Source: Levilactobacillus yonginensis (lineage in GTDB: Bacteria; Bacillota; Bacilli; Lactobacillales; Lactobacillaceae). From it: a DNA stretch of 64,000 nucleotides. The notes beneath the pieces are model-generated. The model did no database searches and was not told where the DNA came from. It worked only from the letters and a program-made list of their open reading frames with translations. The DNA is taken from contig NZ_RHNO01000003.1 of the NCBI RefSeq assembly GCF_003946265.1, forward strand, positions 117,331 through 181,330. Reading direction: 5' to 3'. Of the stretch, positions 1 through 63,665 are shown piece after piece. The position numbers were made by a program, and so were the translations under genes. Position 1 is the stretch's first letter; each line of letters begins with the position of its first letter.

Positions 1-134
1 GTGAACTGTCGGACTTAGAACACGGGACGATCTTGGAAACTCGGTGGTCTTCCGAGGTTTCAAGTCGAGGAGTAAGACCGCTTCTCAGGCTTACTCCGGT
101 CCCCACAGCAGACGCCATTACTGGCGGCCGCAGG
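1..134 (+). repeat. Family A structured repeat, copy A1 (cut by window edge)
   Basis: The left closing arm lies outside the window. Visible are the conserved CACGGGACGA segment, a hairpin with arms CTTGGAAACTCGG and CCGAGGTTTCAAG around a TGGTCTT loop, the joint GTCGAGG, a second hairpin with arms GGAGTAAG and CTTACTCC around an ACCGC-type loop, then CGGTCCCCACAGC and the right closing arm. The same order of parts recurs in seven other full copies. It abuts the 3' end of the short NAD(P)-binding gene. Confidence 0.85.
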
Positions 135-152
135 TGACAATTAGTGGCGTGC

Positions 153-635
153 TTACCCCGCGAACTTAGTTAGGGGCACGTCAGCATCGTCGCTCCCAAA
201 AACCTTAACGGGAGCCGGATTAACTGCCAAGAGTGTGTTGATTTCGCCAAAACCATCCACGAGGTCAAAGTCCAGGCCAGCCGTCATCAGTTGCCGCCGG
301 GCATCCCTAATTTGGCCAGGCAATTCAACGATGTCGTCGGTCCGACCGACCAACAACCGGTGCGTACCCGCGGCCTGTGCCGCAGTAATCAGCGTCGTCA
401 CCGTCTGGGTCAATTTGATAGTTGGCACCAAGGCCACCACCATGTCTTGGTCAAGCATGGCGGCCGTTAACCCACCCTCGTCCAGCGTCTCACCGGTCAG
501 AGCCATGACGGATTGCGGCAAGTCGACCGCACTCGGTGTGTACACGGTTAAACTCACGTGATTATTTTGACTGAGTTGGCGGACAAAGGTTTGGCTGGTC
601 GTGTCTAACGCCCCAGCAAGCAGGATTCGTTTCAA
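153..635 (-). CDS. Short NAD(P)-binding (NmrA/SDR-like) protein, probably C-terminally truncated
   Basis: This 160-residue protein begins with a Rossmann-type strand (KRILLAGALDTTSQTFVRQL) and follows the layout of atypical short-chain dehydrogenase or NmrA-like NAD(P)H-binding proteins. The start is TTG, 7 bases after a purine-rich ribosome site (AAGGGAG). The paralogue at 57572-58213 is 213 residues long; this one stops about where that one enters its VSRRSVADF segment, so the last 40 or so residues appear to be missing. Family A copy A1 begins within 20 bases of the stop, so insertion or rearrangement there may have removed the tail. Substrate is unknown. Confidence 0.6.
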   Translation of the reverse strand: MKRILLAGALDTTSQTFVRQLSQNNHVSLTVYTPSAVDLPQSVMALTGETLDEGGLTAAMLDQDMVVALVPTIKLTQTVTTLITAAQAAGTHRLLVGRTDDIVELPGQIRDARRQLMTAGLDFDLVDGFGEINTLLAVNPAPVKVFGSDDADVPLTKFAG

Positions 636-870
636 GGTCGTAACTCCCTTTCGTTTTGATGATGTTTCTTAGTATAAGGGGTTAGACTTAGTCGAAGGCA
701 AGCCCTATTTTTAAAATAATTTCCGCTAAGATTAATAAGAAATTTCTTATTAAAAACTCATTTTTCTGAGCGAGTTTTGGAGGCGGTTCATTGCTTACTC
801 CTATACGGGATAAGGGCTTACGTGAATTCGTTCACACTCACATATCATCAACAGTAGCAATGGTTATCTT

Positions 871-899
871 TTGGATTGCGGGGGTAATTCGTGTACAAT
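871..899 (+). promoter_or_regulatory. Sigma-A promoter of the opuC operon
   Basis: A -35 box TTGGAT (871-876) and a -10 box TACAAT (894-899) are separated by 17 bases. The leader is about 140 nt and contains a hairpin with arms CGCCGA and TCGGCG near 993-1011. Nothing else was recognised in the 636-1043 gap. Confidence 0.7.
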
Positions 900-1043
900 G
901 AGTACTAATCGAGAGTTGAGAATTCAAATACGACCGGTCTCCAGGTTGCTTCGTGACTAACGCGTGCTGCCGGCACACCGATCGTTATTTTTACGCCGAA
1001 GAACTGTCGGCGAACGTGACACCATCACACAGGAGGTTAATCT

Positions 1044-2249
1044 ATGCTACTTTCAATGGAACATCTACGTAAAGAATATCCTAACGGTAAAATAGCCGTC
1101 GACGACTTCAACTTAGAGGTCGACCGCGGCGAATTCATTGCCTTTATCGGAACGTCTGGCTCAGGCAAGACCACGACCATGCGGATGATCAATCGCATGC
1201 TCAATCAAACTTCCGGTACCATCAAGATCAACGGTAAGGATATTTCTAAGATGGATCCAGTCAAGCTCCGGCGGTCAATTGGCTACGTGATTCAAAACAC
1301 CGGGCTGATGCCCCACATGACCATTCAAGAAAACATTGAAATGGTTCCGAAACTACTTGGCTGGTCCAAGGAAAAGCGCGAAGAACAAGCGCACAAAATG
1401 ATTGCCCTGGCACAGTTGCCAGATGAAATGCTGCAACGCTACCCCGGAGAGCTCTCCGGTGGGCAGCAGCAACGGATTGGGGTCGTTCGCGCCCTAGCCG
1501 CCGATCAAGAACTCATTTTAATGGATGAACCCTTTGGGGCCTTGGACCCCATCACGCGTGAATCTCTCCAGGATTTGGTCAAGCATTTACAAAAAGACCT
1601 CGGCAAGACCTTCATCTTCGTCACCCATGATATGGATGAAGCGCTGAACCTCTCAACTAAGGTCGTTATCATGAGCCAGGGTAAGCAGGTCCAAGTCGAC
1701 ACACCCGAAAACATCTTACGCCACCCCGCCAACGAGTTCGTCACAAACTTGATTGGGGAGGAACGCCTGATCAGAGCGCAACCAAACATTCTGACGGTTA
1801 GTCAAATCATGTTAAAGAACCCCGCCGCCATCACTCCTGACAAGACGTTGGAAGACGCCATTGAACAAATGCATGAACGGCGAGTTGATACGCTGTTAGT
1901 TACCGACAAAACCGGTGTTCTGCAAGGCTTCGTTGACTTGGATGATATCAACCGTATCGCGGATGCCCATACGCCAGTCAGCCGGTTCACACAAGACCGG
2001 GTCTTCTACGTTAAGGCCAATGCGTTGATTGGTGATACCGTCGACCGCATCCTGAAAAAAGGTGTGAAGAACGTGCCCGTCGTCGACGAAGACAAACGCT
2101 TAGTCGGTATCGTCACGCGGACCGCCCTCGTGGATATCGTCTACGATGCCTTACATGGTGCACCCGACGCCAATGAGAAACCTGCTTCACCAATTAATGC
2201 TGATATCCATGCTGCCGCAACCCGTGAAGGAGGCGAAATGCCACAATGA
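1044..2249 (+). CDS. opuCA: Glycine betaine/carnitine/choline ABC transporter, ATP-binding subunit
   Basis: This 401-residue cytoplasmic ATPase energises uptake of quaternary-amine osmoprotectants. The Walker A motif GTSGSGKTTT lies near residues 36-45, the signature LSGGQQQR near 138, and Walker B ending LILMDEP soon after. Two CBS domains follow from about residue 255 (the MLKNPAAITPDKTLEDAIEQ region and a second near 330). CBS domains in OpuA/OpuC ATPases sense ionic strength. The start follows a good AGGAGG site. It is the first gene of a four-gene operon in the opuC order and overlaps the next gene by 4 bases. Which substrate is preferred cannot be read from the sequence. Confidence 0.93.
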   Translation: MLLSMEHLRKEYPNGKIAVDDFNLEVDRGEFIAFIGTSGSGKTTTMRMINRMLNQTSGTIKINGKDISKMDPVKLRRSIGYVIQNTGLMPHMTIQENIEMVPKLLGWSKEKREEQAHKMIALAQLPDEMLQRYPGELSGGQQQRIGVVRALAADQELILMDEPFGALDPITRESLQDLVKHLQKDLGKTFIFVTHDMDEALNLSTKVVIMSQGKQVQVDTPENILRHPANEFVTNLIGEERLIRAQPNILTVSQIMLKNPAAITPDKTLEDAIEQMHERRVDTLLVTDKTGVLQGFVDLDDINRIADAHTPVSRFTQDRVFYVKANALIGDTVDRILKKGVKNVPVVDEDKRLVGIVTRTALVDIVYDALHGAPDANEKPASPINADIHAAATREGGEMPQ

Positions 2250-62673: not shown

Positions 62674-62932
62674 TTAAATTCCTCCTTGATTGCTGATAGG
62701 TCTGAGTATAGACCCTTAGGGCCACACGAAGGCAACGCTAAATTAGTTAAAATTCAAAAAAATCACTGATTTATCACGCAATCAGTTAATTCTTTCAAAA
62801 AGTTTTGGGGCTTGTTCACTAATCATGTGTTCAATTAGCTATCTTGCTGAATTGACAGCTATTTACCGACTTTCATCAAATGAACAAGACACTAAATTCC
62901 GATAATATCTTTCATTTTAATCATTTTGGATA

Positions 62933-62985
62933 TTTGTATTTATTCTAAAAGAGTATATACTTACGAATTGTAAGCACCATTTACA
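62933..62985 (+). promoter_or_regulatory. Promoter and operator-like repeat of the second DUF2255 gene
   Basis: TTGTAT (62933-62938), a 17-base spacer and TATACT (62956-62961). Inverted repeat TGTAA-N7-TTACA covers 62969-62985, just after the expected start site. The rest of the 62674-62932 gap is AT-rich with nothing recognised. Confidence 0.68.
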
Positions 62986-63052
62986 AATTCTCGCGTTCTC
63001 GCAGGCGCGGATGACTACCGTTGACTTGAACTGAAAATGGAGGAATTTACTG

Positions 63053-63442
63053 ATGGATACAACTACTACACCATGGACCAATGAACAATTAGACTTATTT
63101 TTAAATGGCCACACCTTAACGATGAAGCCTTATAACTCTGACATGACTACCTTTGAAGAAGAATCTTCCGTTTGGGAAGTCGTTGTTGATGGCAACGTTT
63201 ACTCCCGCGGCTGGAACGGCCAACAGACCAAGTGGTACATGGCTGCCGTCGCCCAAAGTGCAGGTGAAATCAGCGTTAGCGACCACAACTTTGCGGCCCG
63301 TTTCGAACCAGCCGAACAATCGGCCGATTTAGATGCCAAAATTACGGCAGCGTACAAGGCCAAGTACGACGGCCAACGTTCTTTACCAAGAATGATTTCA
63401 GAAAACCCAACTGCCGCTACACTGCACGTCATGCCTCGTTAG
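63053..63442 (+). CDS. DUF2255-family protein (second copy)
   Basis: This 129-residue paralogue of the product at 58445-58822 shares VVVDGNVYSRGWNGQQTKWY, the AAVAQSAGEI segment and KAKYDGQRSLPRM. The TTxPWTNEQLDLFLNGH start fits the same N-terminal helix. Function unknown. It has its own promoter with an operator-like repeat, and is followed by a family A copy. Confidence 0.85.
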   Translation: MDTTTTPWTNEQLDLFLNGHTLTMKPYNSDMTTFEEESSVWEVVVDGNVYSRGWNGQQTKWYMAAVAQSAGEISVSDHNFAARFEPAEQSADLDAKITAAYKAKYDGQRSLPRMISENPTAATLHVMPR

Positions 63443-63471
63443 ATAGCGTTGACGCTGAAACTGGTCAGGAA

Positions 63472-63665
63472 CTCCAGCCTATGGGGACCGATCGAAGCCT
63501 GAGAGGCGGTCTTCAAGCTCGGTGGTAATCCTTGCCCAACCCATAAGTCTTACCACCGTCCAGTAGAATCGGACCGAAAGTTCCGGACCGATTCTACCTT
63601 CACAGGCTCAGGCCGGAGGCGTTCCCCACAGCAGGCGGACTCTCCGAGCGCCTCCGGTGGCTGAG
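63472..63665 (-). repeat. Family A structured repeat, copy A10 (divergent, inverted)
   Basis: Read on the minus strand: hairpin AGAATCGG/CCGATTCT, hairpin CGGTGGTAA/TTACCACCG, a shortened third arm and CGGTCCCCATAGGC. A further CCGGAGGCG/CGCCTCCGG palindrome with CCCCACAGC lies at 63613-63655, suggesting a second, partial copy fused to it. Confidence 0.65.

What the first reader, a model, noticed from the sequence alone, without database searches (positions are those of the whole stretch)
1..63665. Family A: a 165-200 bp intergenic structured element with covarying stems, ten copies in 64 kb
Seen directly: copies at 1-134, 25697-25877, 31826-32007, 38579-38774, 38995-39158, 40600-40770, 44546-44727 and 63472-63665, plus collapsed forms at 4588 and 58951. 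Each has a closing stem of 16-24 bp, then hairpins P2 (loop near TGGTTTT), P3 (loop near TGGTCTT) and P4 (loop ACCGC). Joints CACGGGACGAG, GTCGAGG and CGGTCCCCACAGC are conserved. P4 arms are GGAGTAAG/CTTACTCC, GGAGCGAG/CTCGCTCC, GGGCAAAG/CTTTGCCC, GACTAAAG/CTTTAGTC and GGAGCAAG/CTTGCTCC, i.e. both sides change together. P1, P2 and P3 do the same. Conserved loops with compensatory stems are the signature of a structured RNA. Against a simple MITE: terminal repeats differ completely between copies. Alternative: palindrome correction by template switching can also create complementary changes without RNA function.
Basis: partly seen in the sequence, partly recalled or inferred. Interest (0 to 1): 0.93.

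Follow-up and report, generated by a model that had tools for sequence, protein, structure and literature searches.

The report
Paired folded RNA-like jumping elements
The genome of this lactobacillus (genus Levilactobacillus) carries well over a hundred copies of a folded element of about 190 bases, many set head to head and some still inside small units with the marks of jumping DNA, and the fold of one strand has been kept in evolution, likely because that strand is made into an RNA that would act on transcription between genes.

Summary
In detail: five intact family-A copies (186-193 bp), one cut by the window edge, one with altered P2, and shortened forms. The fold is real: 95.4% of 6019 pair cells are paired (shuffles 76.5%, slid 37-45%); 56 of 66 pairs change on both sides. 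The own genome has at least 150 A copies and 79 end motifs of a sister family B; model R1 matches 32 of 151 Lactobacillaceae genomes. Rfam gave nothing.

The case against a MITE fails: P1 is not the terminal repeat. Twenty-one units have 14-bp inverted ends (CTAAAGGTTGAAAG) shared with a 1559-bp IS4-family element; 11 of 21 show 7-bp target duplications. Elements often sit one per strand, pointing outwards: 58 of 64 close neighbours are head to head. The window's own copies show no such ends.

Yet copies do not decay like MITEs. Orthologues are 93.9% identical against 74.0% in adjacent 5' spacer, and paired sites accept G.U over A.C (49:16) while flank mutation is symmetric (214:213). So the + strand fold is selected. 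Best guess, untested: IS4-spread, partly domesticated RNA modules acting on transcripts that leave the intergenic spacer.

The parts
1..138 (+). family-A element, 5' part cut off by the window edge (whole copy G000:C23:117280-117468); head-to-head partner at C23:116904-117088(-), just outside the window
   Evidence: R1 109 bits for the part, 184.5 bits for the whole
4588..4691 (-). shortened family-A element (104 bp); counterpart of the same length at the syntenic site of G032
   Evidence: R1 64 bits
25695..25880 (+). family-A element; orthologue in L. tongjiangensis; internally deleted in G032
   Evidence: R1 175 bits
31823..32008 (+). family-A element; present in L. tongjiangensis, deleted between GGCC repeats of the two P1 arms in G032
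   Evidence: R1 171 bits
38580..38772 (-). family-A element, left half of a head-to-head A-A pair; a promoter-like site (38469-38441, -) lies between it and gene 36705-38408(-)
   Evidence: R1 175 bits; promoter-like match 10 of 12 (number of such sites in the stretch is at chance)
38992..39162 (+). family-A element with altered P2, right half of the same pair; a terminator-like hairpin (39214-39189, -) lies between it and gene 39231-39983(-)
   Evidence: R1 95 bits
   Evidence: R2 72.7 bits; end motif
40592..40779 (+). family-A element, right half of a B-A pair
   Evidence: R1 175 bits
44360..44470 (-). possible remnant of a family-A partner of the next copy (approximate ends, read by eye; no model match)
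   Evidence: CAGTCCCCACAGC at 44370-44382(-); sequence shown
44543..44728 (+). family-A element; identical in G032, 97.3% in L. tongjiangensis
   Evidence: R1 175 bits
58951..59040 (-). 3' half of a family-A element, internally deleted; whole in L. tongjiangensis
   Evidence: alignment to L166 1805-1986
63479..63605 (-). partial, rearranged family-A element
   Evidence: R1 63.5 bits over model 30-159; further joint match at 63620-63632(+)

Best explanation
These are branched elements of about 150-200 bp, of two sister families (A and B), many of them in head-to-head pairs, that likely spread inside small non-autonomous units with IS4-type ends, and whose + strand is likely made into an RNA that would act as a two-way filter on transcripts leaving the intergenic spacer. 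Shown here: the fold and its covariation; the pairing; inverted ends and 7-8 bp target duplications in units whose ends are still recognisable, and their match to an IS4-family insertion sequence; same-site copies in sister species and loss by internal deletion; stronger conservation of retained copies than of the neighbouring 5' spacer; a G.U over A.C bias at paired sites without a matching bias in flanking mutation. Inferred: an IS4-family transposase moved the units in trans; after insertion the ends and the spacer decay while the structured parts are kept by selection. Predicted and untested: RNA polymerase leaving the spacer in either direction transcribes one element in the sense direction; that RNA folds as it is made and would end, stall or mark for decay the transcript before it enters the flanking transcription unit, so that a head-to-head pair serves both directions.
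For: Fold: 94 distinct own-genome copies: 95.4% of cells paired, covariation score 0.513 against 0.172 shuffled; family B, 16 rows: 94.9% against 84.3%. Same architecture in Secundilactobacillus, Lactiplantibacillus and two unnamed genera. Pairs: 58 of 64 neighbours under 600 bp are (-,+), 0 of 10,000 orientation shuffles. Mobile unit: 18 aligned own-genome units, ends, 46 end matches against 2 reversed in the own genome, 30 of 46 within 130 bp outside an element's 3' end in the expected orientation; at least 6 of 7 flanking bases repeated in 11 of 21 distinct units; insertion sequence with the same ends, an 8-bp duplication and an IS4-family transposase. Selection: 24 orthologue comparisons at 16 sites, elements 93.9%, 5' flank 74.0%, element higher in 22 of 24, two ties; single changes WC-GU 49 against WC-AC 16, flank C/T 214 against A/G 213; G.U above A.C in all four gene-orientation classes (ratios 1.8 to 4.9).
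Against: No transcript, promoter or partner is known. Promoter-like and terminator-like sites are at chance numbers in the two stretches scanned, so the placement outside transcription units is weakly supported; TATAAT-like sites in 5' flanks show no direction. No T run follows the element, so it is not an ordinary intrinsic terminator. The conserved joints are more than a terminator needs. The conservation figure counts only copies found by the model in both genomes and over 75% identical, so decayed copies are left out: of 35 matches in contig C23, 13 have no same-strand match in the mapped G032 interval. Three of the A-G032 orthologue pairs (those at C23 155910, 156322, 161873) are identical, two of them with identical 5' flanks. 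Three-prime flanks are also fairly conserved (85.8%; element higher in 16 of 24). The binomial p treats changes as independent, though some sites enter more than once; 23 changes there go between a WC pair and another mismatch. Ten of 21 units show no good target duplication at the tested register. L. hammesii copies (16 looked at) have no recognisable IS4-type ends, and of 17 L. nangangensis copies 4 left and 2 right ends match with at most 2 mismatches. Two of 35 genus genomes (G012, G025) gave no match. Units with a single detected element exist (L095, L097, L195, L236), so pairing is not obligatory.
Confidence: 0.45

Rival explanations
1. An IS4-family MITE family with no host function: the fold serves transposition or the stability of the DNA unit, and older copies are merely slow to decay.
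For: Inverted ends, 7-8 bp target duplications, the matching insertion sequence, lineage-specific amplification in L. hammesii and L. nangangensis, intergenic placement.
Against: Ends decay while retained inner structures are kept at fixed sites across species; the constraint is on one strand, for which a double-stranded IS4 mechanism gives no reason.
Confidence: 0.25
2. Each copy encodes a small RNA, perhaps bound by one host protein, transcribed from its own spacer, with head-to-head copies made from a two-way promoter.
For: Strand-specific constraint whichever way the neighbouring genes point; unpaired joints shared across genera.
Against: No enriched promoter in the spacer was found; spacers vary strongly between L. 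hammesii copies; stem and loop sequences differ between copies, so no common base-pairing target is evident.
Confidence: 0.2
3. The complementary changes come from palindrome correction by template switching at DNA hairpins, without RNA function.
For: Copies are lost by deletions inside the palindromic arms, so slippage at these palindromes does occur.
Against: It predicts G.U about equal to A.C; observed 49:16 among orthologues and 222:59 among own copies. It does not explain conserved loops and joints.
Confidence: 0.05

Closest known systems
IS4-family MITEs (non-autonomous elements that share the ends of an IS4-family insertion sequence)
   Same: Units of 374-729 bp with the inverted ends of an IS4-family insertion sequence, 7-8 bp target duplications and many intergenic copies.
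   Different: The interior carries one or two elaborate branched folds in outward orientation that stay conserved where the ends are no longer recognisable.
bcr1-bcr18 intergenic repeats of the Bacillus cereus group (passages of PMC3446304 seen; the original bcr papers not seen)
   Same: Intergenic repeat families, 165 and 155 copies in two strains, some MITE-like and some with conserved RNA structure; 84 of 165 and 62 of 155 reported inside transcripts.
   Different: Other genus; no sequence comparison was made; the head-to-head pair and IS4-type ends are not mentioned in the passages seen.
BOX and RUP of Streptococcus pneumoniae; REP/BIME elements of enterobacteria (recalled, no call)
   Same: Short structured interspersed intergenic elements; RUP is thought to be moved by an insertion sequence in trans (recalled).
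   Different: No relation was tested; the closing stem with three inner hairpins and the outward pairing are as described here.

Membership tests
IS4-family MITE | terminal inverted repeats shared with an IS4-family insertion sequence | tested here: met
   CTAAAGGTTGAAAG at both ends of 21 distinct units (at most 2 mismatches each) and of a 1559-bp insertion sequence (L284); transposase NF049925 470 bits, cut-off 250. Not met for the window's own copies nor recognisable in 16 L. hammesii copies
IS4-family MITE | target site duplication | tested here: met
   7 of 21 distinct units 7/7, 4 more 6/7, 10 fewer; insertion sequence 8/8. One of the 21 (L069, 220 bp) holds no element match
IS4-family MITE | moved in trans by the transposase | not testable with these tools
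   needs a transposition assay
IS4-family MITE | clean empty sites between close genomes | tested here: inconclusive
   C23 against G032: of 13 without a listed match, 3 show a related element in the sequence, 7 keep arm or end remnants (one, C23:15321, could also be an empty site), 2 have other DNA, 1 (C23:6573) is nearly clean (my reading)
structured non-coding RNA | covariation beyond column composition | tested here: met
   R-scape itself was not available
structured non-coding RNA | strand-specific pairing (G.U over A.C) | tested here: met
structured non-coding RNA | expression | not testable with these tools
   no RNA-seq
Rfam families | match to a curated model | tested here: not met
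   Searches (window, gathering thresholds; four loci, E<=1): none
intrinsic terminator | T run after the stem | tested here: not met
   3' flank profile of 90 own copies shows no T run in the first 30 bases
REP/REPIN with RAYT transposase | dedicated TnpA-REP gene | not tested
   not searched

The most novel reading that the evidence does not exclude
A transposon-delivered, domesticated two-way RNA device: IS4-type MITEs in Lactobacillaceae have planted head-to-head pairs of complex RNAs throughout the intergenic regions of this genome, where each faces outwards and governs or silences transcripts leaving the spacer, so that over one percent of the genome is an undescribed selected RNA layer.
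Probability: 0.3. Interest if true: 0.88.

Novelty: new variant of a known kind. Interest (0 to 1): 0.74.

Why it matters
If true, at least 150 A copies and about 78 B copies (about 40 kb, roughly 1.5% of this genome, my estimate with fixed lengths) are largely selected structured sequence that no Rfam family found here describes. It would be a case of MITE cargo kept as RNA after the transposon ends have decayed, in lactobacilli that are easy to culture, with two genus members without a match as natural controls.

Tried and rejected
Leads. (1) Orientation relative to genes was first read as an insulator rule: 3' ends lie 42-115 nt (class medians) from a gene, 5' ends 307-526 nt away (155 of 162 elements classed, 7 at edges, crude ORF calls). 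Much of this follows from the head-to-head unit itself, so it is not independent evidence for insulation. (2) A strand bias caused only by read-through of the upstream gene: rejected, the bias is as strong where the upstream gene points away (GU/AC 3.2 against 2.6). (3) A REP-like mRNA 3' stabiliser for the opposite gene: disfavoured because the constrained strand is the other one. (4) A spacer promoter: looked for, not above chance. (5) Plasmid and phage collections: no match to one family-A copy; two queries with insertion-sequence ends gave short hits and no intact element. (6) One contig against its sister species gave no sure fresh insertion.

Literature: eight searches, listings and starts of abstracts seen only, and passages of one paper (PMC3446304). 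Listings were partial: 12 of 84, 12 of 30, 10 of 18 (where the ten listed hold only the 11-base motif and have unrelated titles, mostly vertebrate genetics). Nothing listed describes this element. Most subscription papers are not in the library.

Cuts and drops: seeds without a recognisable left or right end were left out of alignment A1 (27 rows, two of them added back by hand). A2 comes from 51 own-genome sources at E<=1e-15 (98 rows, 94 distinct), A3 from 51 other sources at E<=1e-10 (137 rows). Orthologues under 75% identity were dropped; identical or repeated pairs were dropped (18 of 24 kept). In one search one of 79 family-B ends was dropped for overlapping an A match; B copies were given a fixed length, and 3 of the 58 head-to-head pairs overlap by 51-133 bp on that assumption. 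In one search, 10 of 16 L. hammesii copies were aligned. Row L072:7346-7522 of A4 looks like family A and was left in. Genome searches scored a capped number of candidates (150, 74, 17 or 18 per genome), so copy numbers are floors.
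Full report
What was checked. Direct reading and folding show the copies and their layout: closing stem P1; hairpin P2; a short stem GGGAC/GTCCC; hairpin P3; hairpin P4 (AGACCGC...GGCT); then CCCCACAGC and the second arm of P1. 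Model R1 finds nine places on the proper strand in the window: five intact, one cut by the edge, one with altered P2, two shortened or partial; four further rows are echoes on the opposite strand, because the fold is palindromic. A tenth place, at 58951, was not found by R1 and is shown by alignment to a whole copy in L. tongjiangensis.

How many and where. In the own genome (2.69 Mb, 63 contigs) all 150 scored candidates of 1095 pass E<=1e-3, the worst at 2e-21, so 150 is a floor. Thirty-three of 35 genomes of the genus, the own one included, match at E<=1e-3. The genus is Levilactobacillus by named neighbours. In the family sample 32 of 151 genomes and 9 of 36 genera match R1 at E<=1e-6, and 29 of 151 and 7 of 36 match the family-B model R2. 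Contig lengths name Lactiplantibacillus, Secundilactobacillus and Loigolactobacillus (the latter with one match per genome) among the R1 genera. Copies from Secundilactobacillus, Lactiplantibacillus and two unnamed genera keep the same hairpins and joints. Among 51 named loci outside Levilactobacillus around one gene, matches at E<=0.1 fell only in Lactiplantibacillus. Rfam gave nothing; one family-A copy matched nothing in the plasmid and phage collections.

Covariation. On 94 distinct own-genome copies 95.4% of 6019 cells are standard pairs (shuffles 76.5%, slid 37-45%), 56 of 66 pairs have changes on both sides and the covariation score is 0.513 against 0.172. The alignment was fitted to the model, which favours the structure; the effect is far beyond the controls.

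Which strand. G.U outnumber A.C cells 334 to 59, or 222 to 59 without the columns where G.U is the commonest pair; in the relatives' alignment 385 to 119 and 329 to 114. Among 18 distinct orthologue pairs, single changes between a Watson-Crick pair and G.U number 49, between a Watson-Crick pair and A.C 16 (binomial p = 5e-5, changes taken as independent), and between a Watson-Crick pair and another mismatch 23; 11 pairs changed on both sides and stayed Watson-Crick. Flank differences are symmetric (C/T 214, A/G 213) and so are unpaired ones (31, 31). So the strand named + here is the one whose fold matters. G.U exceed A.C in all four classes of neighbouring gene orientation (ratios 1.8 to 4.9), so the bias does not depend on read-through of an upstream gene.

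A second family and the pair. The end motif CGGTAAGGCG occurs 79 times in the own genome against 3 reversed and marks family B, which has the same plan; some members seem to lack P3 or P4 (my reading). Of 64 neighbours closer than 600 bp among 228 A and B elements, 58 are head to head (31 A-B, 24 A-A, 3 B-B), 4 are (-,-), 1 (+,-), 1 (+,+); no orientation shuffle of 10,000 reaches 58. By model ends the spacing is 77-79 bp in 13 and 70 bp in 2 of the 15 own units in which both lists hold the two members. In the window the pairs are 38580(-)/38992(+) and 40262(-)/40592(+).

The mobile unit. In L. hammesii, 10 aligned copies share a B element, a variable spacer and an A element, with little in common outside; IS4-type ends were not recognisable in the 16 copies looked at. 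Of 18 A-B units of the own genome, 15 share more than 40 bp further on the left and 11 more than 50 bp on the right, ending in CTAAAGGTTGAAAG and its complement. That end occurs 46 times in the own genome with at most one mismatch against 2 reversed; 30 of the 46 lie within 130 bp outside an element's 3' end in the expected orientation. Six further genomes of the genus hold 3 to 73 such ends. Of 21 distinct units with both ends found (at most 2 mismatches each), 7 have identical 7-bp flanks, 4 differ at one position and 10 match less well; good ones include Lactiplantibacillus (L095, L097). A 1559-bp insertion sequence in G014 has the same ends, an 8-bp duplication and an IS4-family transposase (NF049925, 470 bits, cut-off 250), and no A or B match. 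So the units are best called IS4-type MITEs; movement in trans is inferred, and so is the same origin for copies without recognisable ends, such as those of the window.

Age and constraint. Own contig C23 (181 kb, 35 matches) was compared with 200 kb of sister genome G032 (mostly 84-93% alike, with a 98-99% block). Twenty-two of the 35 have a same-strand match in the mapped interval, two of them doubtful (67036 and 67295 share an interval with a third); 13 have none. Of the 13, three show a related element in the sequence, seven keep arm or end remnants, two have other DNA and one is nearly clean. The copy at window 31823 is deleted in G032 between GGCC repeats of its two arms but present in L. 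tongjiangensis. In 24 orthologue comparisons at 16 sites the elements are 93.9% identical (4094 of 4361), 5' flanks 74.0% (2476 of 3347) and 3' flanks 85.8% (1096 of 1277); the element exceeds the 5' flank in 22 of 24 (two ties) and the 3' flank in 16 of 24; paired sites differ less (5.2%) than unpaired ones (8.0%). Copies within the own genome are on average 65% identical, so gene conversion between copies is unlikely to be what keeps orthologues alike. The figure is conditional on copies found in both genomes.

How it may work. At one pair the elements seem to lie outside transcription units: a promoter-like site lies between 38580(-) and the gene downstream, and a terminator-like hairpin between 38992(+) and the gene it faces (such sites are at chance numbers there). 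With an element on each strand pointing outwards, any transcript leaving the spacer contains one sense element. An RNA that folds as it is made and stops or marks such transcripts fits the strand, the orientation and the independence from neighbouring genes. This is inference; no promoter, transcript or partner has been shown, and there is no T run for intrinsic termination. A small RNA made from the spacer, or a purely transposon-related role, remain open.

Verdict. Not categorically new: the vehicle is an IS4-type MITE. New as far as these searches go: the family itself, its paired layout and the strand-specific selection on its cargo.

Noticed in passing
window 38530-38547 and 38810-38827: The element at 38580(-) is flanked by an 18-bp inverted repeat with one mismatch (AATTGTGATAGGTCGTGT / ACACGACCTATCACAGTT), partly kept in L. 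tongjiangensis; it is not the IS4-type end.
   Followed up: no
window 20112-20284, 31532-31653, 53968-54143: Another interspersed repeat of about 120-175 bp (72-84% alike by blastn), not matched by the A or B models there.
   Followed up: no
window 1 to about 31838: This part is 98-99% identical to sister genome G032, while the stretch before it is mostly 84-93% and later parts 84-98%: looks like a recent recombination block.
   Followed up: no
window 44787-45611: A 274-aa protein with only the N-terminal SAM-like domain of tyrosine recombinases (XerC/D-like over about residues 11-116), next to the element at 44543; no megablast match in the plasmid collection.
   Followed up: partly
L208-L223 (L. 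hammesii): Among A copies that are mostly 91-98% identical to their nearest neighbour, the tips of P2 and P3 differ strongly but stay complementary: hairpin ends seem to change faster than the rest (sequences, read by eye).
   Followed up: no
genomes G012 and G025: Two species of the genus without a match at E<=1e-3: possible element-free controls.
   Followed up: no
P1 ends and some P4 stems of family A (alignment A1): Symmetric GNA/GNA internal loops (GCC-GGA-GG / CC-GGA-GGC) recur at the element ends and in some P4 stems, and CGAG/CGAG sits at the base of P3: possible sheared G.A motifs (read by eye; motif names recalled).
   Followed up: no
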